From contig NZ_MQUA01000004.1 in the NCBI RefSeq assembly GCF_002943715.1, positions 1 through 64,000 of the forward strand: DNA of 64,000 nt. Reading direction: 5' to 3'. The notes beneath the pieces are model-generated. The model did not search any database and was not told the origin of the DNA. It was given only the letters and a program-made list of their open reading frames with translations. Within the stretch, counting starts at the first letter, position 1; the number at the start of each line of letters is the position of its first letter. Positions 22,765 through 55,282 of this stretch are shown piece after piece. A program made the position numbers and the translations under genes. Origin of the DNA: Polaribacter filamentus (GTDB lineage: Bacteria; Bacteroidota; Bacteroidia; Flavobacteriales; Flavobacteriaceae).

Positions 22765-24126
22765 ATGAAGAAAGCAGCAATATTTGCACTTTTAATAGCC
22801 GTTTTTTACAGTTGTGGTTCTAATGATAGAGGAGAATTAGTAGGTGTAAAATCTAAGAAAAAATGGTTCGCAGAAAAACCTTACGGAATGGTGTTAATTC
22901 CAGGTGGTTCTTTTACAATGGGAAAACAAGATGAAGATATTGTAGGTACTATAAATACGCCCACAAAAACAGTTACTGTGAGTCCTTATTTTATGGATGA
23001 AACCGAAATCACAAACAACGAATATAAAGAATTTGTCTTTTGGGTTAGAGATTCTATCGTAAGAACAAAATTAGCTTATCAAGCAGAGTTTGCTGGTTTA
23101 GGAGCTACTCCAGATGCAAATGGAAATATACCTTCTGGCGGAATTCAGAATTATAAATTTAAAGATACAGTTGCAAATGCTACACCATATCAAAAATATA
23201 TGTATGATAACTATTACAGTTTTGATACGATCCAAGCATTAGACTGGAGTGAAGAAATTATTTGGAAAACAGAAGATTTTCCAGATGTGGACTATGTAGA
23301 AGTAATGGATACTTTATTTATTAGTAAAGACAATTCTATAGATGGTCTTAGAACTTTTAATACAAAGTATTTAAAATATAAATATTCTTGGTTTGATATA
23401 GATAACGCTGCAAGAAAAGGTGGTAATAGAAAAGATTTTGTACAAACAGAAGTTTTGAACGTATATCCAGATACTACAGTTTGGGTTAAAGATTTTAATT
23501 ATTCTTATAATGACCCGATGCATCAAGATTATTTTTATCATCAATCTTACGGAGATTATCCTGTTGTTGGTGTTACTTGGGGACAAGCGAATGCATTTTG
23601 TAATTGGAGAACAAAAAAGAAGAATATTTATTTATTAGGAAAGAAAAATGTAACTCAGGTTCCAGATTTTAGATTGCCTATAGAGGCAGAATGGGAATAT
23701 GCAGCAAGAGGTGGTTTAGATTTTGCAACCTATCCTTGGGGAACAGGAAGTACTACAAGTGACAGGGGTTGCTTCTTAGCAAACTTTAAACCTGTAAGAG
23801 GAAATTATGCAGTAGATGGCGCTTTGTATACAATGGAAGCAAAATCATTTAATGCGAATGATTATGGACTTTATAATATGGCTGGGAACGTTTCTGAATG
23901 GACAAATACAGCGTATAATTTATCTTCGTACTACATGGCTTCTACCATGAATCCTAACGTAGAGGATAGAAAAAACAAAAGAAAAATTATTAGAGGAGGT
24001 TCTTGGAAAGATGTAGCATATTATTTAGAAGTTGCTTCTAGAGATTATGAATATGCAGATACAGCAAGAAGTTACATTGGTTTTAGAACCGTTCAAAATT
24101 ACATTGGTACAACAAACAAGAAATAA
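22765..24126 (+). CDS. gldK: Gliding motility / T9SS lipoprotein GldK
   Basis: An outer-membrane lipoprotein that with GldN forms the periplasmic ring of the type IX secretion system. The signal ends at a lipobox (FYSCG, Cys17). The rest is a formylglycine-generating-enzyme-like (sulfatase-modifying) domain: GMVLIPGGSFTMGKQDED, MDETEITNNEYKEFV, LPIEAEWEYAARGG, YGLYNMAGNVSEWT and RGGSWKD. The 453 residues are typical. It is the first gene of gldK-L-M-N, with short gaps of 27, 42 and 16 bases between members. Confidence 0.96.
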   Translation: MKKAAIFALLIAVFYSCGSNDRGELVGVKSKKKWFAEKPYGMVLIPGGSFTMGKQDEDIVGTINTPTKTVTVSPYFMDETEITNNEYKEFVFWVRDSIVRTKLAYQAEFAGLGATPDANGNIPSGGIQNYKFKDTVANATPYQKYMYDNYYSFDTIQALDWSEEIIWKTEDFPDVDYVEVMDTLFISKDNSIDGLRTFNTKYLKYKYSWFDIDNAARKGGNRKDFVQTEVLNVYPDTTVWVKDFNYSYNDPMHQDYFYHQSYGDYPVVGVTWGQANAFCNWRTKKKNIYLLGKKNVTQVPDFRLPIEAEWEYAARGGLDFATYPWGTGSTTSDRGCFLANFKPVRGNYAVDGALYTMEAKSFNANDYGLYNMAGNVSEWTNTAYNLSSYYMASTMNPNVEDRKNKRKIIRGGSWKDVAYYLEVASRDYEYADTARSYIGFRTVQNYIGTTNKK

Positions 24127-24153
24127 TAAAAAAACAAAATAATTTAAAAGAAA

Positions 24154-24789
24154 ATGGCACAGTCAAGATCATACAAAAAAACAATGAATTTCTTATATGG
24201 GATGGGAGCAGCAGTAGTAATTGTTGGCGCTTTATTTAAAATTCAGCATATTACAATTGGGCCACTTACGGGAGGATTAATGTTAACAATTGGGTTATTA
24301 GTAGAAGCATTTATTTTTGCAATTTCAGCATTTGATACTCCAGAAGACGAATTTGATTGGACAAAAGTATATCCAGAGTTAAGTCAAGAAGGATTTTCAT
24401 CAGAAGCTAAATTAGGTACAGATGGTTTATTATCTCAAAAGTTAGATGCTTTATTACAAGAGGCTAAAATAGATTCTACTTTAATGGAAAGTTTAGGAAC
24501 TAGTATGAAAAATTTTCAAGGAGCTGCAGAGGGATTGTCTGCCGCATCAGAATCTATTTCATCAACAAATAAATACAATGAGCAAGTTTCCTTAGCAGCT
24601 GTGCATATGGAATCTTTAAACGGGTTGTATAAAGTTCAAGTAGAAAACTCAAGTAAACAAGAAGCGTTAAATACGGCTGTTGTAGAAAATACAGAAAGAT
24701 TAAAAGAACAAATGGAATCTTTAGCAAAAAACTTATCTTCTTTAAACGGAGTTTACGGGAATATGCTTTCTGCAATGTCAAGTAAATAA
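24154..24789 (+). CDS. gldL: Gliding motility / T9SS motor protein GldL
   Basis: An inner-membrane stator of the proton-driven GldLM motor, 211 residues. The N-terminal region has two membrane helices (about residues 11-30 and 40-62) with the conserved GMGAAVVIVGALFKIQH and TIGLLVEAFIFAISAF. A cytoplasmic tail follows, with coiled-coil-like segments. It lies between gldK and gldM. Intact. Confidence 0.96.
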   Translation: MAQSRSYKKTMNFLYGMGAAVVIVGALFKIQHITIGPLTGGLMLTIGLLVEAFIFAISAFDTPEDEFDWTKVYPELSQEGFSSEAKLGTDGLLSQKLDALLQEAKIDSTLMESLGTSMKNFQGAAEGLSAASESISSTNKYNEQVSLAAVHMESLNGLYKVQVENSSKQEALNTAVVENTERLKEQMESLAKNLSSLNGVYGNMLSAMSSK

Positions 24790-24831
24790 TTAGTTAAATA
24801 ATTTGAATAACCTAAAAACTAATTAGAAAAT

Positions 24832-26358
24832 ATGGCTGGAGGAAAAATGTCTGCAAGACAAAAGATGATTAACTTAATGTATCTTGTATTTATTGCTATG
24901 TTAGCAATGAATATGAGTAAAGAAGTTTTAAGTGCTTTTGGTTTTATGAATGAAAAGTTAGAAACTAATAATGTTTCAACTACAGAAAAAAATAATCGAG
25001 CTTATGAAAATTTAGCAACTAAAGCGGCAGAGCAAGCTGCAAAATTTGATAAGTTAAATAAACAAGCATTACAAATTAAAAAATATTCTTCTGAATTTTA
25101 TAGTTATTTAGATGATTTAAAGTTAAAAATGACTGCGGACGTAGAAGATAAAAAAGATTACGAATCTATGGATAAAACTGACTTTTTAGATACTCATTTT
25201 TTTAAGGGAGATACGTATACAAAAAAAGGACAAGAGTTTTTAGACAAGATCAATGGGTATAGAGAGAATGTAAATGCGGAGTTAGGTGCGGGAAATAAGT
25301 TTGAGTCTTTAATAAATAATAGATTTAATACAAACGAAGAAACGGATTCAGATGGTAAAACTGTTGCATGGTTAAAATATAGATATGAAGGTTTTCCTTT
25401 AATAGCCTCCATAACAAACTTATCACAAATGCAAGCTGATATTAAGAACTCAGAAAGCGAAATTTTAAATTCTTTGTTAGGTGGAAAATTAGAAGAATCG
25501 TTGTCATTAAACAACTATAAAGGGATTGTAGCGCTTGATAAAAACGCATATTTTGCGGGTGAGAAAGTTACTGGTAAAATAGTTTTAGGACGTTATGATG
25601 CAACAATGGTTCCTGATAATGTAATCTTGAATGGTCAAAATTATAAGAATATAGAATCTGGTCAAGTAATTATAGATATGCCTGCAGGTACTATTGGTAA
25701 TCATGACATTAAGGGAAAAATAACCTTTACGCAAGATAGTAAACCGGTTGAGGTTCCTTTTGAGAGTTCTTATTCTGTAATTCCAGAACCCGGCGATGCT
25801 GTAGTTTCTGCCGATAAAATGAATGTAGTTTATAGAGGTTTAGATAATCCTATATCGGTGTCTTTGCCTGGCGTAAGTGATAATAACTTAAAGGTTTTAG
25901 CAACAGGCGGTAATTTATCTGGTAATAACGGTAAATACAGTATCAAACCAGGTGAAGGAGGTATTGCAACTATTATTGTTAGTGCAACATTAAGTAGTGG
26001 TAAAACTGTAAATTCTAAAGCAACTTTTAGAATTAAAGATATACCAGCAGCAATGGGTTCTGTTCGAGATCAATATGGAATCGTTAGAATGCCAAAATCT
26101 GGTTTAGCGAATTCACCAATTTCTGCAGGTTTGCCAGATTTTGAGTTCGATTTAAATATTACTGTACAAGGCTTTAAAATTAAAGTGCCTGGAGAGTTAA
26201 CGATTATTGTTGAAGGAACGACTTTGAGTGCAGCAGCTAAAAAAGTTTTAGACAAAGCACAAAGAGGCGATATTATTAATATCTATGATATTAGAGCAAC
26301 TGCAAATGGTTATAACCTTAAACAAGTTTTACCGGTAAGTATAGAGTTAACTAATTAG
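24832..26358 (+). CDS. gldM: Gliding motility / T9SS motor protein GldM
   Basis: The rotor-linked half of the GldLM motor, 508 residues. It has one N-terminal membrane helix (MINLMYLVFIAMLAMNMSKE), then a long periplasmic region of four domains that reaches to the GldKN ring. Recognisable family sequences include VLSAFGFMNEKLE, the middle YRGLDNPISVSLPG and the C-terminal GSVRDQYGIVRMPKSG. It stands in normal order after gldL. Intact. Confidence 0.96.
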   Translation: MAGGKMSARQKMINLMYLVFIAMLAMNMSKEVLSAFGFMNEKLETNNVSTTEKNNRAYENLATKAAEQAAKFDKLNKQALQIKKYSSEFYSYLDDLKLKMTADVEDKKDYESMDKTDFLDTHFFKGDTYTKKGQEFLDKINGYRENVNAELGAGNKFESLINNRFNTNEETDSDGKTVAWLKYRYEGFPLIASITNLSQMQADIKNSESEILNSLLGGKLEESLSLNNYKGIVALDKNAYFAGEKVTGKIVLGRYDATMVPDNVILNGQNYKNIESGQVIIDMPAGTIGNHDIKGKITFTQDSKPVEVPFESSYSVIPEPGDAVVSADKMNVVYRGLDNPISVSLPGVSDNNLKVLATGGNLSGNNGKYSIKPGEGGIATIIVSATLSSGKTVNSKATFRIKDIPAAMGSVRDQYGIVRMPKSGLANSPISAGLPDFEFDLNITVQGFKIKVPGELTIIVEGTTLSAAAKKVLDKAQRGDIINIYDIRATANGYNLKQVLPVSIELTN

Positions 26359-26374
26359 CATTAAAAATTAGATT

Positions 26375-27229
26375 ATGAATAGAAACTTTTTAATATTATT
26401 TTTTACTTTTTTAACATCTGGTCTCGTAAATGCGCAAGTTAATTTACTAAATGCAAAATCAGTTGACCAAATTGGTAAAGAAAGCTTGCAACAATTAGCC
26501 GCAGATAATGATGGGCCAATTCCTTACGGATATGTAGATGATAGAGATATAATGTGGTCTAAAGTGGTTTGGGAGTTTGTAGATTTAAATCAAAAAATAA
26601 ATTTACCGTATTATTTTCCAATAGATACTACAAATATTTCCTCTTCAAGAAGGTCATTATTTGATACGTTGTTAAGAGGAATTAAACAAGGTGAAATTAA
26701 AGAAGCATATTCAGATTCTTTTTTTACATCAAAAATGACACAAGAAGAAATTAAATCTCGTTTGGTAAATGTACGTACGCAAAATGGATATGAAGATACG
26801 TATAGAGTTCAATCACAAGATATTGGAGGATATATGTTAAAAGGGATGTGGTATTTTGACAAGCGTCAAGGAGAGATGAAATACAGATTATTGGCAATAG
26901 CGCCAATGGGAAAAGATGTACAAACAATTGGTGCAGAAGGTATTGAAGATGAAAAGTTGTTTGAGTTATTTTGGATTTTCTTTCCAACAGCAAGAGAAAC
27001 CCTGCATGATTCAAAAGTGTTTAATCCAGACAATGCATCCTATCCAATTTCGTACGATCACTTATTAAATGCTCGAAGGTTTAGCTCGGTAATTGTGAGA
27101 GAAGAAAATATTTATGGCAATAGAGCCATCGAAGAGTATGTTCGTGGCAATTCTTTATTCCAGCTTTTAGAGGCAGATAAGATTAAAGAAGACATTAGAA
27201 ATAGAGAAATTGATATGTGGAGTTATTAA
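26375..27229 (+). CDS. gldN: Gliding motility / T9SS ring protein GldN
   Basis: A periplasmic protein that pairs with GldK in the T9SS ring, 284 residues. It has a signal peptide (residues 1-20, ending VNAQ). It shows the conserved IPYGYVDDRDIMWSKVVWE, YRLLAIAPMGKD and LFWIFFPTARETL. It ends the gldKLMN operon and is followed within 25 bases by a strong terminator. Confidence 0.96.
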   Translation: MNRNFLILFFTFLTSGLVNAQVNLLNAKSVDQIGKESLQQLAADNDGPIPYGYVDDRDIMWSKVVWEFVDLNQKINLPYYFPIDTTNISSSRRSLFDTLLRGIKQGEIKEAYSDSFFTSKMTQEEIKSRLVNVRTQNGYEDTYRVQSQDIGGYMLKGMWYFDKRQGEMKYRLLAIAPMGKDVQTIGAEGIEDEKLFELFWIFFPTARETLHDSKVFNPDNASYPISYDHLLNARRFSSVIVREENIYGNRAIEEYVRGNSLFQLLEADKIKEDIRNREIDMWSY

Positions 27230-29692: not shown

Positions 29693-32600
29693 GTGAAAAA
29701 AATAATTAGAACACCATCAAAGCATTTCATTTATATATTATTTTTTGTCTTTGGATTTTTAACAAGTTTTAAGGGGAGTGCTCAAATTACAATATCTAGT
29801 GTTGTCGTAAATTCATGCACTGGCAGTATTACTGTAACAGTAGGTGGAGGTGACGGAAATTATGGGTATAAATGGTTTAAAGAGAATCAAGAGCCTCCTC
29901 CAAATAATTGGGACCCGCTAATTGATGATGATTGGTTCATAAACGATCAAGCACCAGGAAGGTATAGAGTTATTGTAACTGATGCAAACGATGAGGTAGA
30001 AGGAGTTTATGATATTTCTGAGTCTGTTGACTTAATTGTTACAGAAATATTCTCAGGATTAGTCTGTCCAGAAGATCTTAATTCGGGAGTAATTATTTTG
30101 CGGTTTCGTAACGGATTTCCCCCTTATACATGGACTCTTGCGGGAAGCACTGAACGTGCTGGAATATTTACCCCTACAGATACACCTTATTACCTGTCTA
30201 TAGATAATATTCCTGTCGGAAATTACACTTTTGCTTGGACGGATGATTTTGGGTGTTCGGGAACAGAAGAAATCACAGTCTCTGCCCCTCCAATAACTGA
30301 ATTAACAATCAATACAACTACTGATGTACTTTGTTTTGGAGATAGTAATGGAGGAATAAATATAAGCCTAACAGGTGGATGGGGCCCTAATTATGCAATA
30401 AATATAGTATCAGATGGACAGGCACCACAACCGATAGAAAACTTTACAAATATTGGAGATGGAACAAGTTATACTATTAATAACCTTGCTGCTGGTACTT
30501 ATCAAATATATTATTATGATAAATTAGCAAATCCGCCTCTTACAACTACCTATGGTCTAGATGTTAGCAATTATAATTGTGCAAAATCTAAAACATTTAC
30601 GATTAATACACCTTTAGAACTAATAAGCACTCCTACTGGTGAGCTGCTTTCTTGCTTTGGAGATACTGATGGAAACATAACAGGTACAATAACAGGAGGA
30701 ACTGCTCCTTATAGTATAACACTTGATGGCACAGCGACTCAAATTACAGTAATTGCTGATGGCGACAGTTTTAATTTTTCAGGATTAAGTGCTGGAACGT
30801 ATGATTTCACAATTACTGATGCTGTTAATTGTTCTATTACTGCACAGGCATTAATCACGCAGCCAGACGAACTAATTACAGGTTTTGTTTCTAAACAAGA
30901 TGTTTCTTGTAATGCAGGTACTGACGGAAATAGTATGGTCTCAGTAACTGGCGGAACCGCTCCTTATATTTTTAAAGTTGATGGGGTACTTGTTACGCCT
31001 ACTTTAGCTAGCGGTGATAATTACACGATTGGAAACTTATCGGCAGGGACTTATAACATTACCATTACCGATCAAAATAACTGTACTGCTTCAACAGTCA
31101 TCACACAAACGATCAAAGAACCAAGTTCTTTAGCAGTTGCTGCTTCAGGAGAGACGCTTACGTGTTTTGGGGATTCTGATGGGAATATTACAGGAAGTAT
31201 ATCAGGAGGAACCGCACCATATAATATTACTCTTATGGAAACCGGAGTTCAGTTTACAGGAATTATTGATGGAGGCGCTTTTGATTTTTCAGGATTAAGT
31301 GCAGGAACTTATAATTTCACCATCACTGATGCTAAGGATTGTACAACCACAGTGCAAGAAACTATTAATACCCCTTTAGAGTTAATAAGTACTCCTGCTG
31401 GTGAGTTGCTTTCTTGCTTTGGAGCTACTGATGGAAACGTAACAGGTACAATTACAGGAGGAACCGCACCATATACTATTAAACTTGATGGCACAGCGAC
31501 TCAAATTACAGGAATTGCTGATGGCGGCAGTTTTGATTTTTCAGAATTAAGTGTAGGAACGTATAATTTCACCATTACTGATGCTGTTGGTTGTATTGAT
31601 ACTGCACAAGCAGCAATTACTCAGCCAGACGAACTAATTACAGATTTTGTTTCTAAACAAGACGTTTCTTGTAATACAGGTACTGACGGGAATATTATTG
31701 TCTCAGTAACCGGCGGGACCGCTGCTTATATTTTTAAAGTTGATGGGGTACTTGTTACTCCTACTTTAGCTAGTGGTACTAATTACACGATTGGAAACTT
31801 ATCGGCAGGGACTTATAACATTACCATTACCGATCAAAATGACTGTACTGCTACAACAGATATCGAACAAACGATCACAGAACCTGCTGAAATAAGTTTA
31901 TCACTGGTTTCTTTTGAGAACTTATCTTGCTTCAATTCAGGAAATGGATCCATTACAGTAGGAGTTACAGGAGGAACTTTAAGCACTACCCCAGGAGCGC
32001 CAAACTATATTTTTACACTTACAGGACCCAGTGCTGTTATAGCGCAAGATAATGGAGGTGGAACATGGACATTCGGTTCTTTAGATGAAGGTACATATAC
32101 AATCAGTGTAACGGATCAAAATAATTGTATTTCTAACCCAGCACAAATTACTCAGGAACTTACACAGCCTTTAGCGATTAATTTCACAGCCTTAGAGCAA
32201 GATATTAGTTGTAATGGAACTGAAGACGGAAGTATTGATATTATTGTAACAGGAGGAACGATTCCGTATACTTATTTGTGGACAAGTCCAAATGGTTTTA
32301 ACGCAACCACCCAAGATATTAGTGCATTAGCACCTGGAGAGTATAGCATAACGGTAATCGATGATAATGGATGTACTGTTGAAGAGACCTATACCATTGA
32401 AGAACCCGATGTACTTGGTGTATTAGGAGATCCTTTTGATTACTCTGGATATGGAGTATCAGGAAACGGTTTGAGTGATGGAATTATTGATATTACTGTA
32501 ACTGGAGGAACGACTCCATACACATACTCTTGGACAAGTCTAAACGGAACAATCCCTGTTGGTCAAGAAACGCAACAAAACCTCAGCAATCTTAACGCGG

Positions 32601-35600
32601 GAACGTATACCTTACTAATTACCGATAAAAATGGCTGTACAATTACTAAAACTTGGGAAATTACAGAACCTTTTGAACTACTGATTAACGAGAATCCAGC
32701 TTCTCATGTAGATGTTTTGTGTTTTGGAGAAAACACAGGTGTTATAAAAGTTGTTGTAACACAACAATCCGTTGGTCCTTATGATTATGCGATTACCGAT
32801 AGTTCAGGGGTTGAGGTAGAACGAGTGACTGACCAAAACGCAGTTAGCTATGTGTTTGATGATTTACTAGCAGACACGTATACTGTAACGGTAACCGATG
32901 CAAATGGAATTAGTAAGTCTATCAATAACATTATAATTGCACAGCCTTTAAGTTTGTTAGAAATTTCTAGTGAGATCATTTCAGATTTTAATGGATTTGG
33001 TATTAGTTGTAATGGAGCTGCTGATGGGAGTATTGACATCACTGTAAGTGGAGGTACGACTCCGTACACATATGTGTGGGAAGGTCCAAATGGTTTTAGT
33101 GCAACAAGCCAAGATATTAGTGCATTATCTCCTGGAGATTATACCATAACGGTAACCGATGCAAATGGATGTATTACTTCTCCAGAAACCTATACGATTA
33201 CAGAACCCGATGTACTTGGTTTAGCAGGAGACCTTTCAGATTATAATGGATTTGGAGTCACAGGAAACGGTTTGAGTGATGGAATTATTGACATTACTGT
33301 AACTGGAGGCGCTATTCCATATAGTTACTCTTGGGCAAGTCTTGATGGATCCATCCCTGTTGGTCAAGAAACGCAACAAAACCTTAGCAATCTTAATGCG
33401 GGAACGTATACGGTACAAATTACCGATACAAATGGCTGTACAATTACCGATACTTGGATAATTACGGAACCTCAAGAACTACTAATTTTGGAGGAAATAG
33501 CTTCTCATGTAGATGTTTTGTGTTTTGGAGAAAACACAGGTGTTATAAAAGTTGTTGTAGACCAAGGATCTGTTGCACCTTATGATTATGCTATTACCAA
33601 TAGTTTGGGAGTTGAGGTAGAACGAGTGACTGACCAAAACGCAGTTAGCTATGTGTTTGATGAGTTACTAGCGGACACGTATACTGTAACGGTAACCGAT
33701 GCAAATGAAATTAGTAAGTCTATCAATAACATTATAATTGCACAGCCTGCAGCTATTTTAAGCATAGATACAGTAGATCTATCACTAAACAATGGGTTTA
33801 ATATTTCCTGTAATGGAGCTGCTGATGGGAGTATTGACATCACTGTAAGTGGAGGTACGACTCCGTACACATATGTGTGGGAAGGTCCAAGTGGTTTTAA
33901 TGAAACAACGCAAAACATTAGTGCATTATCTCCTGGAGATTATACCATAACGGTAACCGATGCAAATGGATGTATTACTTCTCCAGAAACCTATACGATT
34001 ACAGAACCCGATGTACTTGGTTTAGCAGGAGACCTTTCAGATTATAATGGATTTGGAGTCACAGGAAACGGTTTGAGTGATGGAATTATTGACATTACTG
34101 TAACTGGAGGCGCTATTCCATATAGTTACTCTTGGGCAAGTCTTGATGGATCCATCCCTGTTGGTCAAGAAACGCAACAAAACCTTAGCAATCTTAATGC
34201 GGGAACGTATACGGTACAAATTACCGATACAAATGGCTGTACAATTACCGATACTTGGATAATTACGGAACCTCAAGAACTACTAATTTTGGAGGAAATA
34301 GCTTCTCATGTAGATGTTTTGTGTTTTGGAGAAAACACAGGTGTTATAAAAGTTGTTGTAGACCAAGGATCTGTTGCACCTTATGATTATGCTATTACCA
34401 ATAGTTTGGGAGTTGAGGTAGAACGAGTGACTGACCAAAACGCAGTTAGCTATGTGTTTGATGAGTTACTAGCGGACACGTATACTGTAACGGTAACCGA
34501 TGCAAATGAAATTAGTAAGTCTATCAATAACATTATAATTGCACAGCCTGCAGCTATTTTAAGCATAGATACAGTAGATCTATCACTAAACAATGGGTTT
34601 AATATTTCCTGTAATGGAGCTGCTGATGGGAGTATTGACATCACTGTAAGTGGAGGTACGACTCCGTACACATATGTGTGGGAAGGTCCAAATGGTTTTA
34701 GTGCAACAAGCCAAGATATTAGTGCATTATCTCCTGGAGATTATACCATAACGGTAACCGATGCAAATGGATGTATTACTTCTCCAGAAACCTATACGAT
34801 TACAGAACCCGATGTACTTGTTTTAGGAGGTGTTCTTTCAAATTACAATGGATTTGGAGTGTCAGGAAACGGTTTAAGTGATGGAAGTATTGACATTACT
34901 GTAACTGGAGGAACGACTGAGTACACCTACTCTTGGACAAGCTCAGATGGAATAATCCCTTCTGGACAAGAAACTCAAGAAGACCTTACAGGTCTTAATG
35001 CGGGAACGTATACGGTTCTAATTAAAGATGCAAATGACTGTACAATTACCAAAACTTGGGAAATTACAGAACCACAAGAACTACTAATTTCGGAGGAAAC
35101 AGCTTCTCATGTTGATGTTTTGTGTTTTGGAGAAAACACAGGTGTTATAGAAGTTGTTGTAGACCAAGGATCTGTTGCACCTTATGATTATGCTATTACC
35201 AATAGTTTGGGAGTTGAGGTAGAACGAGTGACTGACCAAAACGCAGTTAGCTATGTGTTTGATGAGTTACTAGCAGACACGTATACTGCAACGGTAACCG
35301 ATGCAAATGGAATTAGTAAGTCTATCAATAACATTATAATTGCACAGCCTTTAAGTTTGTTAGAAATTTCTAGTGAGATCATTTCAGATTTTAACGGATT
35401 TGGTATTAGTTGTAATGGAGCTTCTGACGGAAGTATTGATATTACTGTAAGTGGTGGAGCAGCAGGCTACACCTATGCATGGACAAGTCCAAATGGTTTT
35501 AATGCAACCACCCAAGATATTAGTGCATTTGCACCTGGAGCGTATAGCATAACAGTAACCGATGCAAATGGATGTAGTACTTCTCCAGAAACCTATACGA

Positions 35601-38600
35601 TTACAGAACCTACTGCACTTGTTTTAGGAGGTGTTCTTTCAAATTATAATGGATTTGGAGTGTCAGGAAACGGTTTAAGTGATGGACGTATTGACATTAC
35701 TGTAGCGGGAGGAACGACTCTATACACATACTCTTGGACAAGTCTAAACGGAACAATACCTGTTGGGCAAGAAACTCAAGAAGACCTTACAGGTCTTAAT
35801 GCGGGAACGTATACGGTTCTAATTAAAGATGCAAATGACTGTACAATTACTAAAACTTGGGAAATTACAGAACCACAAGAACTACTAATTTCGGAGGAAA
35901 TAGCTTCTCATGTAGATGTTTTGTGTTTTGGAGAAAACACAGGTGTTATAAAAGTTGTTGTAGACCAAGGATCTGTTGCCCCTTATGAGTATACAATTAC
36001 CGATAGTTCAGGGGTTGAGGTAGAACGAGTGACTGACCAAAACGCAGTTAGCTATGTGTTTGATGAGTTACTAGCAGACACGTATACTGTAACGGTAACC
36101 GATGCAAATGGAATTAGTAAGTCTATCAATAACATTATAATTGCACAGCCTTTAAGTTTGTTAGAAATTTCTAGTGAGATCATTTCAGATTTTAATGGAT
36201 TTGGTATTAGTTGTAATGGAGCTGCTGACGGAAGTATTAATATCACTGTAAGTGGTGGAGCACCAGGGTACACCTATGCATGGACAGGTCCAAATGGTTT
36301 TAGTGCAACAAGCCAAGATATTAGTGCATTAGCACCTGGAGCGTATAGGATAACAGTAACCGATGCAAATGGATGTAGTACTTCTCCAGAAACGTATACT
36401 ATTACGGAGCCTACTGCACTTGTTTTAGGAGGTGTTCTTTCAAATTACAATGGATTTGGAGTGTCAGGAAACGGTTTAAGTGATGGACGTATTGACATTA
36501 CTGTAACTGGAGGAACGACTGAGTACACCTACTCTTGGACAAGCTCAGATGGAATAATCCCTTCTGGACAAGAAACTCAAGAAGACCTTACAGGTCTTAA
36601 TGCGGGAACGTATACGGTTCTAATTAAAGATGCAAATGACTGTACAATTACCAAAACTTGGGAAATTACAGAACCACAAGAACTACTAATTTCGGAGGAA
36701 ACAGCTTCTCATGTTGATGTTTTGTGTTTTGGAGAAAACACAGGTGTTATAGAAGTTGTTGTAGACCAAGGATCCGTTGCACCTTATGATTATGCTATTA
36801 CCAATAGTTTGGGAGTTGAGGTAGAACGAGTGACTGACCAAAACGCAGTTAGCTATGTGTTTGATGAGTTACGAGCAGACACGTATACTGTAACGGTAAC
36901 CGATGCAAATGGAATTAGTAAGTCTATCAATAATATTATAATTACACAACCTGCAGCTATTTTAAGCATAGATACAGTAGATCTATCGCTAAACAATGGG
37001 TTTAATATTTCCTGTAATGGTGCTGCTGATGGGAGTATTGACATCACTGTAAGTGGAGGTACGACTCCGTGCACATATGTGTGGGAAGGTCCAAGTGGTT
37101 TTAATGAAACAACGCAAAACATTAGTGCATTAGCACCTGGAGCGTATACCATAACAGTAACCGATGCAAATGGATGTAGTACTTCTCCAGAAACGTATAC
37201 TATTACGGAGCCTACTGCACTTGTTTTAGGAGGTGTTCTTTCAAATTACAATGGATTTGGAGTGTCAGGAAACGGTTTAAGTGATGGAAGTATTGATATT
37301 ACTGTAAATGGAGGAACGACACCGTATAACTACTCTTGGACAAGCTTAGATGGATCCATCCCTTCTGGACAAGAAACGCAACAAAACCTTAGCAATCTTA
37401 ATGCGGGAACGTATACAGTGCAAATTACCGATACAAATGGCTGTACAATTGCGGATAGTTGGACAATTACGGAGCCTAATGAACTCGTAATTTCGGAGGA
37501 AACAGCTTCTCATGTTGATGTTTTGTGTTTTGGAGAAAACAAAGGTGTTATAGAAGTTGTTGTAGACCAAGGATCCGTTGCTCCTTATGATTACAAGATT
37601 ACCAACAGTTTGGGAGTTGTTGTAGAACAAGTAAATGCTCAAACGGCGCTTAACTATGTATTTGATGTATTGTTTGCAGACACTTATACTGTAACGGTAA
37701 CCGATGCAAATGGAATTAGTAAGTCTATCAATAACATTATAATTACAGAGCCTTTAAGTTTGTTAGAAATTTCTAGTGAGATCATTTCAGATTTTAACGG
37801 ATTTGGTATTAGTTGTAATGGAGCTTCTGACGGAAGTATTGATATTACTGTAAGTGGTGGAGCAGCAGGCTACACCTATGCATGGACAAGTCCAAATGGT
37901 TTTAATGCAACCACCCAAGATATTAGTGCATTAGCACCTGGAGAATATACCATAACAGTAACCGATGCAAATGGATGTAGTACTTCTCCAGAAACGTATA
38001 CCATTACGGAGCCTGATGAAATAATAATCAACACCACCCTGCTTCAGGATGTACAATGTTTTGAAAACAGTGATGGCAAAATTGAAATTACAATTACGGG
38101 AGGAACTGGGGATTTTACATATAATTGGACTAAAAACAGCACTCCTTACGCAACAACTAAAAATCTCGCGGGGCTTTCCCCTGGAGAATATGTATTAATT
38201 GTTCAAGAAGATGGCAATGCACAGTGTTATAGAACGAAAACCTTTACCATTACGCAACCTGATTTATTAGAAATTGCTTTTGAAAGTAAAACAGATATTC
38301 TTTGTTATGGCGATTCAACTGGTAGTGCTCAAATTTCTGTTACAGGAGGTACGAGTCCTTATCAATATTCTTGGATGGAAGCTAGCGGAGCAACATACAA
38401 TACACAAGATTTAGTAGGGGTTCCAGCCGGAGATTATCAGCTTACAGTAATCGACGCCTTAGGATGTAGCGATACGTTTAATGTAATTTTGAACGAGCCT
38501 GATAATATAGTATTAAACGAAAGTAAAACTGACATTACTTGTTTCGGATCCAATGATGGAACAATAAGCATCGCTGTAACTGGAGGCGTTTCGCCTTATA

Positions 38601-39967
38601 CGTATGTCTGGAGTGATTTAGGAAGCGGCCCTTTGAGAAGAGACTTGGCTCCCGGTATTTATGACGTTACAGTTACAGACAGTAATAACTGTCAAAAAAT
38701 GGTACAATTTGAGATAATTGAAGCACCGCTATTTAAGATCGACCCAATAACAACTCATATTTCTTGTTTTGGAGCAACAGACGGCTCAATTGACTTAAAT
38801 TTAGTTGGAGGTATAGCTCCTTTAAATATTACTTGGGGTGATGGCAATAGTGCAGGACTTATCCGAAACAATTTGTCTGCAGGCTCTTACAGTGTTTTTA
38901 TTGAAGATGCAGTAGGATGTTCAATTGCAAAGAACTTCTCTATTATTGAACCTAATGAAATTGTATTAGATGCTGTTGTTATTAATGCTATTGATTGTAC
39001 AGACCCAAATAGTGGTAGTATAGACCTACAAGTTGTTGGAGGAACAGCTCCATTTATATTTCTATGGAGTAATGGATCTACTACCGAGGATTTACAAAAT
39101 ATTGGAGCTAATAATTATACGGTGACTGTTACAGATAGTCGTGGTTGTGAAGAACAAAAAACAGTTGTAGTTACGCGTCAAACATCCTTAGTTTTAAGTT
39201 TAAACACTAGTATTATTCCTGATTGTATAAATAAAACGGTAACACAACGAAATGAACTAGAAGTTACTGGTGGTGTTGCACCTTATAGTGTTAGTTGGTC
39301 TAATGGCATGGTAAGTGGTGCTAATAGTGAAATTATGGAGACCACACAAAATGGCACTGTTATAGTTGAAGTGATCGATAGTTTGGGATGTACAGAGCAG
39401 TTGGTTTTTGATATCAACCTATTTATATTAGGAGACCCTAGTTTTAATTATAGTTCCTTTGCGAACACTAACTACGGAATACTATCTATAGAAGATCCAA
39501 TTACATTTAATAGCACGTCTACAGGAGATATTCTGACTTACCTTTGGTCTTTTGGTGACGGAAATACCTCAACAGATAAAGACCCTATTCATACATATGT
39601 AGCTGAAGGGACATATGAAGTAACTTTAACCGTTCAATATCCATACGGATGTTCTTATGTAGATACGATGACAGTAAATATTGGGAAAGGGTATGATATT
39701 GTAATACCAAATGCTTTTACACCTAATGATGATGGGTTAAATGATGTAATTAGACCTGTTTATATTGGTATGATTGATGTAGAGATGAGTATTTATAGTA
39801 CTTGGGAAGGGTTGATTTATTTTGAAAAGGGACTCGAGTTAAACGGGTGGAATGGGACTATAAAGAATAGTTTAGCTGAAAATGGGAATTATATAATAAA
39901 AGTTAAGGCAACCACTTTTTATGGATTAGTATTAAGTTTTAATAGACCTATAACTTTAATAAAATAA
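29693..39967 (+). CDS. sprB: Giant SprB-like cell-surface adhesin with T9SS type-B C-terminal domain
   Basis: A 3424-residue secreted protein. The start is GTG, chosen because it opens a clear signal peptide (residues 1-31, cleavage after GSAQ). Dozens of SprB-type repeats follow, each with a Cys-containing opening (SCFG.TDG, SCNGA.DGSI, LCFGENTG), a core (GG..PY.Y.W) and an ending (AGTYT.TITD.NGC). Residues about 838-2773 form seven copies of a three-module unit of exactly 267 residues. A PKD domain (YLWSFGDGNTSTDKDP) lies near residue 3280. The C-terminus (NAFTPNDDGLNDVIRP to the end) is the gliding-motility-associated type-B sorting domain. SprB is the mobile adhesin of flavobacterial gliding. 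Orthology to the type SprB, rather than a paralogue, is likely but unproven. Confidence 0.9.
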   Translation: MKKIIRTPSKHFIYILFFVFGFLTSFKGSAQITISSVVVNSCTGSITVTVGGGDGNYGYKWFKENQEPPPNNWDPLIDDDWFINDQAPGRYRVIVTDANDEVEGVYDISESVDLIVTEIFSGLVCPEDLNSGVIILRFRNGFPPYTWTLAGSTERAGIFTPTDTPYYLSIDNIPVGNYTFAWTDDFGCSGTEEITVSAPPITELTINTTTDVLCFGDSNGGINISLTGGWGPNYAINIVSDGQAPQPIENFTNIGDGTSYTINNLAAGTYQIYYYDKLANPPLTTTYGLDVSNYNCAKSKTFTINTPLELISTPTGELLSCFGDTDGNITGTITGGTAPYSITLDGTATQITVIADGDSFNFSGLSAGTYDFTITDAVNCSITAQALITQPDELITGFVSKQDVSCNAGTDGNSMVSVTGGTAPYIFKVDGVLVTPTLASGDNYTIGNLSAGTYNITITDQNNCTASTVITQTIKEPSSLAVAASGETLTCFGDSDGNITGSISGGTAPYNITLMETGVQFTGIIDGGAFDFSGLSAGTYNFTITDAKDCTTTVQETINTPLELISTPAGELLSCFGATDGNVTGTITGGTAPYTIKLDGTATQITGIADGGSFDFSELSVGTYNFTITDAVGCIDTAQAAITQPDELITDFVSKQDVSCNTGTDGNIIVSVTGGTAAYIFKVDGVLVTPTLASGTNYTIGNLSAGTYNITITDQNDCTATTDIEQTITEPAEISLSLVSFENLSCFNSGNGSITVGVTGGTLSTTPGAPNYIFTLTGPSAVIAQDNGGGTWTFGSLDEGTYTISVTDQNNCISNPAQITQELTQPLAINFTALEQDISCNGTEDGSIDIIVTGGTIPYTYLWTSPNGFNATTQDISALAPGEYSITVIDDNGCTVEETYTIEEPDVLGVLGDPFDYSGYGVSGNGLSDGIIDITVTGGTTPYTYSWTSLNGTIPVGQETQQNLSNLNAGTYTLLITDKNGCTITKTWEITEPFELLINENPASHVDVLCFGENTGVIKVVVTQQSVGPYDYAITDSSGVEVERVTDQNAVSYVFDDLLADTYTVTVTDANGISKSINNIIIAQPLSLLEISSEIISDFNGFGISCNGAADGSIDITVSGGTTPYTYVWEGPNGFSATSQDISALSPGDYTITVTDANGCITSPETYTITEPDVLGLAGDLSDYNGFGVTGNGLSDGIIDITVTGGAIPYSYSWASLDGSIPVGQETQQNLSNLNAGTYTVQITDTNGCTITDTWIITEPQELLILEEIASHVDVLCFGENTGVIKVVVDQGSVAPYDYAITNSLGVEVERVTDQNAVSYVFDELLADTYTVTVTDANEISKSINNIIIAQPAAILSIDTVDLSLNNGFNISCNGAADGSIDITVSGGTTPYTYVWEGPSGFNETTQNISALSPGDYTITVTDANGCITSPETYTITEPDVLGLAGDLSDYNGFGVTGNGLSDGIIDITVTGGAIPYSYSWASLDGSIPVGQETQQNLSNLNAGTYTVQITDTNGCTITDTWIITEPQELLILEEIASHVDVLCFGENTGVIKVVVDQGSVAPYDYAITNSLGVEVERVTDQNAVSYVFDELLADTYTVTVTDANEISKSINNIIIAQPAAILSIDTVDLSLNNGFNISCNGAADGSIDITVSGGTTPYTYVWEGPNGFSATSQDISALSPGDYTITVTDANGCITSPETYTITEPDVLVLGGVLSNYNGFGVSGNGLSDGSIDITVTGGTTEYTYSWTSSDGIIPSGQETQEDLTGLNAGTYTVLIKDANDCTITKTWEITEPQELLISEETASHVDVLCFGENTGVIEVVVDQGSVAPYDYAITNSLGVEVERVTDQNAVSYVFDELLADTYTATVTDANGISKSINNIIIAQPLSLLEISSEIISDFNGFGISCNGASDGSIDITVSGGAAGYTYAWTSPNGFNATTQDISAFAPGAYSITVTDANGCSTSPETYTITEPTALVLGGVLSNYNGFGVSGNGLSDGRIDITVAGGTTLYTYSWTSLNGTIPVGQETQEDLTGLNAGTYTVLIKDANDCTITKTWEITEPQELLISEEIASHVDVLCFGENTGVIKVVVDQGSVAPYEYTITDSSGVEVERVTDQNAVSYVFDELLADTYTVTVTDANGISKSINNIIIAQPLSLLEISSEIISDFNGFGISCNGAADGSINITVSGGAPGYTYAWTGPNGFSATSQDISALAPGAYRITVTDANGCSTSPETYTITEPTALVLGGVLSNYNGFGVSGNGLSDGRIDITVTGGTTEYTYSWTSSDGIIPSGQETQEDLTGLNAGTYTVLIKDANDCTITKTWEITEPQELLISEETASHVDVLCFGENTGVIEVVVDQGSVAPYDYAITNSLGVEVERVTDQNAVSYVFDELRADTYTVTVTDANGISKSINNIIITQPAAILSIDTVDLSLNNGFNISCNGAADGSIDITVSGGTTPCTYVWEGPSGFNETTQNISALAPGAYTITVTDANGCSTSPETYTITEPTALVLGGVLSNYNGFGVSGNGLSDGSIDITVNGGTTPYNYSWTSLDGSIPSGQETQQNLSNLNAGTYTVQITDTNGCTIADSWTITEPNELVISEETASHVDVLCFGENKGVIEVVVDQGSVAPYDYKITNSLGVVVEQVNAQTALNYVFDVLFADTYTVTVTDANGISKSINNIIITEPLSLLEISSEIISDFNGFGISCNGASDGSIDITVSGGAAGYTYAWTSPNGFNATTQDISALAPGEYTITVTDANGCSTSPETYTITEPDEIIINTTLLQDVQCFENSDGKIEITITGGTGDFTYNWTKNSTPYATTKNLAGLSPGEYVLIVQEDGNAQCYRTKTFTITQPDLLEIAFESKTDILCYGDSTGSAQISVTGGTSPYQYSWMEASGATYNTQDLVGVPAGDYQLTVIDALGCSDTFNVILNEPDNIVLNESKTDITCFGSNDGTISIAVTGGVSPYTYVWSDLGSGPLRRDLAPGIYDVTVTDSNNCQKMVQFEIIEAPLFKIDPITTHISCFGATDGSIDLNLVGGIAPLNITWGDGNSAGLIRNNLSAGSYSVFIEDAVGCSIAKNFSIIEPNEIVLDAVVINAIDCTDPNSGSIDLQVVGGTAPFIFLWSNGSTTEDLQNIGANNYTVTVTDSRGCEEQKTVVVTRQTSLVLSLNTSIIPDCINKTVTQRNELEVTGGVAPYSVSWSNGMVSGANSEIMETTQNGTVIVEVIDSLGCTEQLVFDINLFILGDPSFNYSSFANTNYGILSIEDPITFNSTSTGDILTYLWSFGDGNTSTDKDPIHTYVAEGTYEVTLTVQYPYGCSYVDTMTVNIGKGYDIVIPNAFTPNDDGLNDVIRPVYIGMIDVEMSIYSTWEGLIYFEKGLELNGWNGTIKNSLAENGNYIIKVKATTFYGLVLSFNRPITLIK
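32203..38010 (+). repeat. 801-bp higher-order tandem repeat inside the adhesin gene (seven copies)
   Basis: The landmark gatgttttgtgttttgg occurs at 32711, 33512, 34313, 35114, 35915, 36716 and 37517, always 801 bases apart. Each unit holds three SprB modules (SCNGA.DGSI, GFGV.GNGLSDG and HVDVLCFGEN types) of roughly 89 residues. An extra first-type module closes the array. No unit carries an insertion or deletion across the seven landmark intervals. Confidence 0.92.
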
Positions 39968-39974
39968 GTTTGAA

Positions 39975-40979
39975 ATGCGACAAGTTATTATTTTTATATT
40001 TTTAGTATTTACGAAATCCACATATGCCCAAGATCCTATATTTACGCAAGCATTTGCAATTCCTGAAACACTAAACACAGGGTTTACTGGAGCGATAGAA
40101 GGCACAAAAGCAGGAATGATTCATAGAACACAGTGGCCAGGGATAGATTTTGGTATCACCACTCAATTTGCTTTTGTTGACACGTGGTTTGATGAGTTTA
40201 ATAGTGGTATAGGAATAAGTATTTTGAATCATAAAGAAACAAAATCAAGATATACTTTTACACAACTTAATTTAAATTATGCACTTGCTTTTCAAATAAG
40301 TAATGCATGGTATTTTAGACCGAGTGTTTCAGTCGGAATAGGGTCAAAGGATTATGGTTTTCAAAATTTGCTTTTAGAGGATCAAATTAATATTCCTAAT
40401 GGAATTATAAATACCTCAAGTATGGATCCTATATTATTAAACCAGCAGAATTTATTTGTTGATTTATCTACATCACTGCTGCTTAATAATGAGCATTCAT
40501 GGATAGGGCTTACTTTGAGACATTTAAATAAACCGAATATTTCAATGACACATAATGGGGAAACCTCATTAGGAATTTTTTTATCTGTACATGGTTTAAT
40601 AGAGATCCCGTTATCTTATTTTTCTGTAGGTAATCAAAACAGCATCTATCTTTTTTCGAATTTCATGAAGCAAGATAAATATGTTAGATTTGATTTTGGA
40701 TCCCAGTATGTTTTTAATGAATTTTCTATTGGAGTATCTATAGCTACAAATCCAGTTAAAAATGAGTATAATGATTCTTTGGTAACATCTGTAAATCCGT
40801 TTATAGGATTCAAATGGGAAGGTTGGAAATTCAATTATTCATATGGTGTTAATACAAGTAAAATTGGGCAAACAGGAGGAGTATATGAATTGTCAATTAC
40901 ACATGAGTTTTCAGAAAATGGATTTGGAAATAAAGGAAAATATAGAGGAAGAAGATTGAAATGCCCTACATTTTTCTAA
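39975..40979 (+). CDS. sprF: PorP/SprF family type IX secretion outer-membrane protein
   Basis: A 334-residue outer-membrane beta-barrel protein with a signal peptide (residues 1-18, ending TYAQ). It opens with the family pattern QDPIFTQAFAIPETLNTGFTG and later shows YALAFQISNAWYFRPSVSVG and GFKWEGWKFNYSYG. It lacks a plug domain. SprF-type proteins are needed for surface localisation of the SprB adhesin encoded just upstream. Here the start lies 7 bases after the adhesin stop, so the two are co-transcribed. The family call is firm. The symbol follows from the neighbour. Confidence 0.88.
   Translation: MRQVIIFIFLVFTKSTYAQDPIFTQAFAIPETLNTGFTGAIEGTKAGMIHRTQWPGIDFGITTQFAFVDTWFDEFNSGIGISILNHKETKSRYTFTQLNLNYALAFQISNAWYFRPSVSVGIGSKDYGFQNLLLEDQINIPNGIINTSSMDPILLNQQNLFVDLSTSLLLNNEHSWIGLTLRHLNKPNISMTHNGETSLGIFLSVHGLIEIPLSYFSVGNQNSIYLFSNFMKQDKYVRFDFGSQYVFNEFSIGVSIATNPVKNEYNDSLVTSVNPFIGFKWEGWKFNYSYGVNTSKIGQTGGVYELSITHEFSENGFGNKGKYRGRRLKCPTFF

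Positions 40980-54944: not shown

Positions 54945-55282
<338 letters not shown>

What the first reader, a model, noticed from the sequence alone, without database searches (positions are those of the whole stretch)
32203..38010. Exact 801-bp higher-order repeat, seven copies, inside a SprB-like adhesin
The landmark gatgttttgtgttttgg recurs at seven positions, always 801 bases apart, so each unit is exactly 267 codons with no net insertion or deletion. Each unit combines three different SprB modules. Such phase-perfect homogeneity over 5.8 kb suggests recent tandem growth or gene conversion, and possibly length variation between strains as a way to vary adhesin reach.
Basis: seen in the sequence. 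Interest (0 to 1): 0.7.

Follow-up and report, generated by a model that had tools for sequence, protein, structure and literature searches.

The report
Shuffled three-module repeats in gliding adhesin
The one SprB-type protein (a predicted surface adhesin) found in a Polaribacter-like bacterium holds seven 801-base copies of a three-module unit whose sequence blocks are shuffled between copies and whose number differs between related proteins, so the adhesin likely grows and shrinks by whole units, and its neighbouring modules are predicted to be stitched together by disulfide bonds.

Summary
The landmark occurs seven times, exactly 801 bp apart; the array spans 32383-38014 (7.03 units), units of equal length. 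It is not homogeneous: units are 82-99% identical. It is a mosaic: neighbouring informative sites conflict far less than permuted ones (0 of 2000 as low), units 2 and 3 differ only within 26 bp, and a linker exists in two forms, both with a counterpart in the nearest ortholog. Units resemble each other within the protein (83% aa) more than those of ortholog P0051 (54%; flanks 44-56%). Unit number differs between related proteins, and one pair, 95.6% identical, differs by one gap of one unit (270 aa). This fits homologous recombination and gene conversion among whole units; a changing adhesin reach is inferred.

New here: across 9,796 SprB modules, loss of a module's first cysteine goes with loss of the NEXT module's second cysteine (odds ratio 168), not of its own (0.6). 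This predicts a disulfide ladder between modules, with one rung missing per 801-bp unit. My first guess, a hinge at the missing rung, was not supported by AlphaFold2.

The parts
29693..39967 (+). SprB-type adhesin gene, 3424 aa (signal peptide by eye, 34 SprB stretches, one PKD, C-terminal type-B-like sorting domain)
   Evidence: GTG start; 34 of the 35 SprB (PF13573) matches of the whole genome lie here
32383..38014 (+). higher-order repeat array, 7.03 units of 801 bp
   Evidence: maximal segment of self-identity at lag 801
32384..33184 (+). unit 1 (linker form X)
33185..33985 (+). unit 2 (linker form Y); differs from unit 3 at 7 sites only
33986..34786 (+). unit 3 (linker form Y)
34787..35587 (+). 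unit 4 (linker form X); modules B 34787-35104, C 35105-35344, linker 35345-35413, A 35414-35587
   Evidence: AlphaFold2 model of this unit, pLDDT 92.4
35588..36388 (+). unit 5 (linker form X)
36389..37189 (+). unit 6 (linker form Y)
37190..37990 (+). unit 7 (linker form X); its C module is the closest of the seven to the ortholog P0122 (0.81 against 0.74-0.78)
33891..33916 (+). conversion-like patch: the only differences between units 2 and 3; here unit 2 is identical to unit 6, and unit 3 to units 1 and 5
30599..31885 (+). second, imperfect repeat pair upstream: 30599-31123 and 31361-31885, lag 762 bp (254 codons), 89% DNA identity over 525 bp
39494..39682 (+). PKD domain
   Evidence: PF00801/PF18911 at about residues 3268-3330
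39701..39907 (+). C-terminal T9SS type-B-like sorting domain (scores under the curated cut-offs)
   Evidence: PF13585 26.4 bits, cut-off 27; TIGR04131 25.3 bits, cut-off 35
39975..40979 (+). PorP/SprF-family outer membrane carrier, directly downstream; C-tail ends with a single Cys (..LKCPTFF)
   Evidence: PF11751, TIGR03519; sequence
22765..27229 (+). gldK, gldL, gldM, gldN: T9SS/gliding ring and motor genes upstream of the adhesin
   Evidence: TIGR03525, TIGR03513, TIGR03517, TIGR03523, all above cut-off

Best explanation
The array is a string of whole three-module (B-C-A, 267-codon) units in a SprB-type, predicted adhesin protein: sequence blocks are shuffled between the seven units, unit number differs between related proteins, and the units likely change in number and are kept alike by homologous recombination and gene conversion between copies, so that the adhesin would change length in steps of three domains. 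Shown: the mosaic, the within-protein similarity, and a one-unit difference between two close relatives. Inferred: the recombination pathway (RecA-type homologous exchange), the rod-like stalk, and the effect on reach. The period is three modules most likely because modules A, B and C differ too much to recombine with each other (37% identity between neighbours, 88% three modules apart), so that in-register, whole-unit exchange is the rule. The modules are predicted to be cross-linked in series: the cysteine in the A-B loop of one module pairs with the cysteine in the F-G turn of the next. In each unit the B-C junction lacks both partners, so two of three junctions are predicted to be cross-linked. 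What the missing rung does is open; AlphaFold2 draws B-C with the highest confidence of the junctions, as a packed pair and not as a hinge.
For: Mosaic: 134 informative sites, neighbour incompatibility 0.152 against a permuted mean of 0.467, 0 of 2000 as low; for 18 of 21 unit pairs the longest shared run beat all 2000 permutations, for the other three 14, 17 and 30 of 2000 reached it. Patch of 26 bp in units 2/3. Unit identity 0.83 within ours against 0.54 to ortholog P0051, whose flanks are 44% (N side) and 56% (C side) identical to ours. All seven units form one clade (100/99, tree of 46 units). C modules: 0.90 within ours, 0.99 between the two full P0122 units, 0.74-0.81 between the proteins, whereas linker form Y is nearer P0122 unit 2 (0.70 against 0.57) and form X nearer P0122 unit 3 (0.65-0.70 against 0.48-0.52). 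P0136/P0146: 2063 of 2159 aligned residues identical, one gap, 270 aa. Cysteines: A-B loop of module i against F-G turn of module i+1, odds ratio 168 (p 2e-190); same module 0.60; skip 0.50; with one protein for each of 63 similarity clusters (of 228 proteins) 453; of 22 clusters with an A-B loss junction, in one random junction each, the next F-G cysteine was also lost in 16-17, the own in 0; repeat on 937 modules from 43 named loci: 34 strict, 454 lenient. Cys27 and Cys176 of the unit are present together in 7, absent together in 56, alone in 0 of 63 units. In the model the two cysteines of a module lie in the A-B loop and the F-G turn, which are at opposite ends of an Ig fold (general knowledge, not measured).
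Against: No reads and no second genome of this species, so recent length change in this species is not shown. The P0136/P0146 difference could be an assembly collapse in the shorter one. Of the five genomes of the genus with the ortholog (of 166 searched), two have contigs that end in the array (G025, both pieces) or at its start (G142), so their counts are unknown. For the pair P0051/G056 the contrast is weaker: 0.83 within each, 0.70 between, flanks 59% and 76%, and their terminal units join each other (89/98), partly because the last module there is a flank module; units of P0002 fall into three groups. The linker comparison rests on 23 residues. A second AlphaFold2 job in the shifted register C-A-B' gave lower confidence (pLDDT 85.1, pTM 0.59; lowest linker blocks 66-73 and 56-61) than B-C-A (92.4, 0.78; B-C junction 94-97, C-A linker 83-87), the opposite of a hinge at B-C. 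Disulfides are predicted, not seen. 70 + 109 of 9217 junctions break the pairing rule (strict), 37 + 61 when the cysteine may shift by 3 residues; a small reverse signal (second cysteine of i with first of i+1) exists: odds ratio 1.75 (p 0.06) strict, 2.3 (p 0.02) without our family, 2.5 (p 0.004) lenient, 0.6 (p 0.8) with one protein per cluster.
Confidence: 0.78

Rival explanations
1. Assembly artefact: the number of units, or the array itself, was made by the assembler from near-identical reads.
For: Two relatives (G025, G142) have contigs that stop in or at the array; long near-identical repeats are a usual cause of assembly errors (general knowledge); genome contamination is given as 5.96%.
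Against: The seven units carry different variants in one open frame. The same assembly holds 27 copies of an insertion element of at least 1.16 kb at 98-100% identity inside its contigs, which short reads would hardly resolve, so long reads were likely used (inference). Other proteins show the same unit in other numbers.
Confidence: 0.08
2. Old duplications that diverged on their own, without exchange between units; similarity is kept by selection alone.
For: Selection does act: nonsynonymous difference is about half the synonymous one (0.105 against 0.218), and cysteines and the GG/W core are conserved.
Against: Conflicting blocks of variants (0 of 2000 permutations), the patch in units 2/3, and units that cluster mostly by protein and not by position are not expected without exchange.
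Confidence: 0.03
3. Length change is a neutral by-product: recombination happens, but the number of units has no effect on adhesion or gliding.
For: No functional data; unit number ranges from 1 to about 15 in related proteins without an obvious pattern.
Against: Reading frame and unit length are kept in all seven units and the cysteine scheme in nearly all related ones. In F. psychrophilum the number of repeat units of a gliding-associated protein was 35 to 88 in five isolates (PMC8400371, section 16); the paper only speculates about its effect.
Confidence: 0.3
4. The two cysteines of each SprB module pair within the module, and B and C simply carry unpaired cysteines.
For: Most modules have both cysteines (8864 of 9416), so counts of presence alone allow it.
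Against: Losses do not go together within a module (5 double losses, odds ratio 0.6) but do between neighbours (144 double losses, odds ratio 168); seen again in other loci.
Confidence: 0.08

Closest known systems
SprB of Flavobacterium johnsoniae (6497-aa gliding adhesin; PMC9870892 and PMC12635249, passages seen)
   Same: SprB repeats along the protein, PorP/SprF-family carrier gene next door, gliding and T9SS genes in the genome: GldJ, SprA, GldKLMN.
   Different: About half the length; C-terminal sorting domain scores under the cut-offs; the carrier has one C-tail cysteine and not the Cys-X-Cys described for F. johnsoniae SprF. The F. johnsoniae SprB sequence itself was not compared.
Periscope proteins (PMC8201768, abstract and start of the introduction seen): bacterial surface rods of near-identical folded domains whose number varies
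   Same: High-identity tandem units of folded domains in a predicted surface protein, number of units differs between close relatives.
   Different: There adjacent domains are highly similar; here neighbours are 37% identical and the copy is three modules away (88%). No N-terminal ligand-binding domain was identified.
Repeat-number variation in a gliding-associated protein of Flavobacterium psychrophilum (PMC8400371, passages and section 16 seen)
   Same: Repeat units vary between isolates in a Bacteroidota gliding-associated protein, seen by hybrid assembly.
   Different: In the parts seen it is given as a count of repeat units (35-88); no mosaic or cysteine analysis was seen there. Its relation to our protein was not tested.
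GhpA grappling hook protein of Aureispira (PDB 9flw, 9flp and others)
   Different: Named a grappling hook protein, not a gliding adhesin. Its own paper was not found in the library, so whether it already reports bonds between domains is unknown to me.

Membership tests
SprB-repeat adhesins (PF13573) of the T9SS | SprB repeats above the curated cut-off | tested here: met
   873.8 bits against 28, 34 stretches
SprB-repeat adhesins (PF13573) of the T9SS | C-terminal type B sorting domain | tested here: inconclusive
   right place (residues 3337-3407) but 26.4 bits of 27 (PF13585) and 25.3 of 35 (TIGR04131)
SprB-repeat adhesins (PF13573) of the T9SS | neighbouring PorP/SprF-family carrier | tested here: met
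   39975-40979, TIGR03519 155.5 bits against 90.55
SprB as the gliding adhesin in the strict sense | carrier SprF with Cys-X-Cys C-tail that bonds to GldK (PMC12635249) | tested here: not met
   C-tail has one cysteine..RRLKCPTFF; relatives G056 and G025 end CPKIF and CPRIF, also one cysteine
SprB as the gliding adhesin in the strict sense | moves along the cell and is needed for gliding | not testable with these tools
   GldJ, SprA and GldKLMN are present in the genome, which allows but does not show it
Periscope proteins | tandem array of highly similar folded domains | tested here: met
   at the level of the three-domain unit: 0.88 at offset 3; predicted folded, pLDDT 92.4
Periscope proteins | adjacent domains nearly identical | tested here: not met
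   adjacent modules 0.37 identical, at most 0.55
Periscope proteins | domain number varies between strains | tested here: inconclusive
   one pair of 95.6% identical proteins differs by one unit; no strains of this species held
Periscope proteins | N-terminal ligand-binding domain | tested here: inconclusive
   no binding-type domain stood out near the N terminus in the Pfam scan; not searched further
Concerted evolution of a tandem array | units more alike within a protein than between orthologs, flanks not | tested here: met
   0.83 within, 0.54 to P0051; flanks 44% and 56%; weaker for the pair P0051/G056

The most novel reading that the evidence does not exclude
SprB-type adhesins are disulfide ladders: each Ig-like module is covalently bonded to the next one (A-B loop cysteine to F-G turn cysteine), which makes the whole filament one cross-linked rod that can carry the pull of the gliding motor. 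In a branch of this family exactly every third rung has been deleted, and that three-module, one-gap unit is the piece that recombination adds and removes.
Probability: 0.7. Interest if true: 0.75.

Novelty: new variant of a known kind. Interest (0 to 1): 0.6.

Why it matters
[quoted passage not shown] A higher-order repeat of three unlike modules would meet both needs, and the panel suggests that period three is common among SprB proteins with a higher-order repeat (offset three is best in 20 of 24 proteins of one search and 10 of 15 of the other; not a random sample). If the predicted ladder is real, it explains why SprB modules keep two cysteines and how a filament of thousands of residues could resist pulling, and it can be tested at once from GhpA coordinates or by mass spectrometry. 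The array would also be a handy system for measuring copy-number change in a marine bacterium of a genus not known to me as a pathogen.

Tried and rejected
1) 'Exact' homogeneous array: rejected, units are 82-99% identical. 2) Single recent amplification: rejected, mean synonymous difference 0.22 and two linker forms with counterparts in P0122. 3) A donor elsewhere in the genome: none found; with the unit as query all 16 matches (E up to 1e-5) lie in this ORF. 4) Hinge at the junction that lacks the disulfide: two AlphaFold2 jobs in two registers; result against it; the two alignments differ (35 and 29 rows, the second cut by shifted coordinates), so this is weak. 5) Disulfide between Cys85 and Cys113 as a swapped pair: dropped, since the panel shows A-B loop with next F-G turn and only a small reverse signal. 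6) Period three as an artefact of the trimer query: partly controlled by the N-terminal query, which gives the same picture, but the proteins are related and not a random sample; at a stricter cut of 0.2 the counts are 4 of 4 and 1 of 3, and single-module periods are as common or commoner than triple ones (19 against 20, and 47 against 25). 7) TRF found no array because its longest period is 500. 8) Rfam on locus L008: nothing. 9) Literature: no paper on inter-module disulfides in SprB or on gene conversion among SprB repeats was seen in the listings nor in the passages of PMC10994853, PMC12618676 and PMC12635249; the library lacks most subscription papers. 10) Structure rows other than GhpA are mostly general Ig/FN3 chains and were not used.
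Full report
OBSERVATION. The landmark is present seven times at exact 801-bp steps and the self-comparison at lag 801 gives one block, 32383-38014, 7.03 units. The block lies in an ORF of 3424 aa, 29693-39967. Units have equal length, but 224 of 801 sites vary, with pairwise DNA identity from 81.6 to 99.1%. The landmark falls into the only stretch of at least 25 bp that is invariant in all seven.

WHAT AND WHERE. The protein has 34 SprB stretches, one PKD domain and a C-terminal type-B-like sorting domain under the curated cut-offs. The next gene is a PorP/SprF-family carrier. gldKLMN lie at 22765-27229 of the window; GldJ and SprA are elsewhere in the genome. 34 of the 35 SprB matches in the genome are in this ORF, and the unit finds no other gene in the genome at E up to 1e-5. 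The nearest named relative of GldM is that of Polaribacter glomeratus, 90%, and a genome of the same genus, G040, has a contig of 4,224,107 bases, the length given for the contig of Polaribacter sp. L3A8; so the genus is very likely Polaribacter.

MOSAIC. Of 224 variable sites 134 are informative and biallelic. Neighbouring sites conflict much less than permuted ones (0.152 against 0.467, sd 0.012, 0 of 2000), while 4164 of 8911 site pairs conflict overall, the sign of blocks with different histories. Block groupings along the unit include {6,7}, {5,6,7}, {4,5,6,7}, {2,3}, {4,6,7}, {4,5,6}, {2,3,7}, {2,3,6}, {4,5,7} and {2,6}. Units 2 and 3 are identical except for seven sites within 33891-33916, where unit 2 equals unit 6 and unit 3 equals units 1 and 5. 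Synonymous difference averages 0.22, nonsynonymous 0.105; the C module is the most uniform part (0.132 and 0.050) and the C-A linker the least (0.385 and 0.267).

RELATIVES. A unit profile finds the same three-module unit in related proteins: ours 7, P0051 4, G056 3 (the last partial), P0003 8 (its start looks cut), P0002 14-15, P0050 8, G152 3, P0129 2, P0122 2 plus one divergent, P0163 3. Of 166 genomes of the genus, five including ours have the N-terminal part of this gene. In G025 two contigs end inside the array, in G142 one contig ends at its start, so those counts are unknown. In the tree of 46 units ours form one clade (100/99), as do those of P0003 (100/99) and P0050 (99/97); P0051 and G056 group by protein except for the terminal units, which join each other (89/98), and P0002 falls into three groups. 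Unit identity is 0.83 within ours and 0.54 to P0051, while the flanks are 44% and 56% identical; for P0051 and G056 the contrast is smaller (0.83 within each, 0.70 between, flanks 59% and 76%). With P0122, the nearest ortholog (68% over the N-terminal 310 residues), the C modules look homogenised apart in each protein (0.90 within ours, 0.99 between the two full P0122 units, 0.74-0.81 between), yet the two linker forms have counterparts: Y is nearer P0122 unit 2, X nearer P0122 unit 3 (23 residues). So at least two units likely existed before the split, and exchange acted since, unevenly along the unit.

COPY NUMBER. P0136 (2429 aa) and P0146 (2159 aa) are identical at 2063 of 2159 aligned residues (83 to 100% by stretches of 100) and differ by a single gap of 270 residues, one unit; the repeated stretch in P0136 is 98% identical over 200 residues. 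This is a whole-unit gain or loss, unless the shorter one was collapsed in assembly. For our genome, 27 copies of an insertion element of at least 1.16 kb at 98-100% identity are resolved inside contigs, which speaks for long reads and for the count of seven.

WHY THREE. In our array, modules next to each other are 0.37 identical (at most 0.55), modules three apart 0.88. Among proteins whose modules show an excess of at least 0.08 at one offset, offset three is the best in 20 of 24 (N-terminal query) and 10 of 15 (unit query); at 0.12 in 11 of 13 and 6 of 7; at 0.2 in 1 of 3 and 4 of 4. By repeat length, among proteins with score 100 or more, a period of 210-290 aa is found in 20 of 51 and 25 of 87, of 140-190 aa in 3 and 5, of a single module in 19 and 47, with 108 and 120 proteins examined. 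The panel is a top slice of search hits with many relatives, so this is a lead.

CYSTEINES. In 63 aligned units Cys27 (module B) and Cys176 (module C) occur together in 7 and are missing together in 56; neither occurs alone. I then tested the modules of 228 proteins: 9796 modules, 9412 adjacent pairs, of which 9217 could be scored. First cysteine of module i against second cysteine of module i+1: 8894 both, 70 and 109 one only, 144 neither (odds ratio 168). Same module: 8864, 251, 296, 5 (0.60). Second of i against first of i+1: 8632, 271, 236, 13 (1.75, p 0.06; 2.5, p 0.004, when a shift of 3 residues is allowed; 0.6 with one protein per cluster). Without the 11 proteins of our family the first figure is 108. 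One protein for each of 63 clusters, the largest with 86 proteins: 453. On 937 modules from the 43 named loci L047-L089, which were fetched with the unit and may overlap the panel: 34 strict, 454 lenient. In an Ig-like fold these two loops are at opposite ends of a module (general knowledge), so the bond that the counts predict runs from each module to the next. Our unit reads '-C C- CC' seven times: the B-C junction has lost both partners, the other two keep them. The gap recurs every third module also in P0003 and P0051, in P0002 (14 of 15 spacings), and in another group, P0175/P0178/P0182 (period 242 aa).

STRUCTURE. AlphaFold2 gives the unit 18 strands in three Ig-like sets (pLDDT 92.4, pTM 0.78). 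The first solved match is GhpA of Aureispira, by Z tied with fibronectin-type rows but far ahead by sequence. I expected the junction without a rung to be loose; the model gives it the highest confidence of the junctions (94-97 against 83-87 at the C-A linker), and the shifted register C-A-B' is less confident (pTM 0.59). I therefore do not claim a hinge. No coordinates were given, so no distance was measured.

VERDICT. Real, more than chance, and a clear case of concerted evolution in a three-module repeat; the adhesin-length idea is plausible and partly supported. The wider and more novel point is the predicted disulfide ladder of SprB modules with a periodic missing rung.

Noticed in passing
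   Followed up: partly
P0175, P0178, P0182 (proteins): Another SprB group with a period of 242 aa whose predicted inter-module rung is missing at every third module, seven times in each.
   Followed up: no
P0018 (protein): 58 modules with 18 missing rungs at spacings of two or three modules.
   Followed up: no
window 35345-35413 and the same place in each unit: The C-A linker exists in two very different forms (X in units 1,4,5,7; Y in 2,3,6), both with a counterpart in the ortholog P0122; likely an old two-form polymorphism kept inside one gene.
   Followed up: yes
window 30599-31885: A second, older repeat pair (254 codons apart) in the N-terminal part; P0144 has a 99% identical repeat at lag 260 aa over 333 residues in its N-terminal part.
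   Followed up: partly
L090:4319-9903: The orthologous gene of G056 is split into two open frames after the array (first ends 8572, second starts 8794); sequencing error or a broken gene, not followed.
   Followed up: no
window 39975-40979: The carrier's C-tail has one cysteine where F. johnsoniae SprF has Cys-X-Cys; the two relatives read also have one.
   Followed up: no
phage record LR756502.1: A 642-kb uncultured phage record has eight places with SprB-like modules, the best at 33.6% identity over 98% of the unit; phage decoration and neck proteins are also among the PDB sequence matches.
   Followed up: no
window 55012-55048: A perfect ATA repeat of 12.3 copies, a possible length-variable tract.
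   Followed up: no
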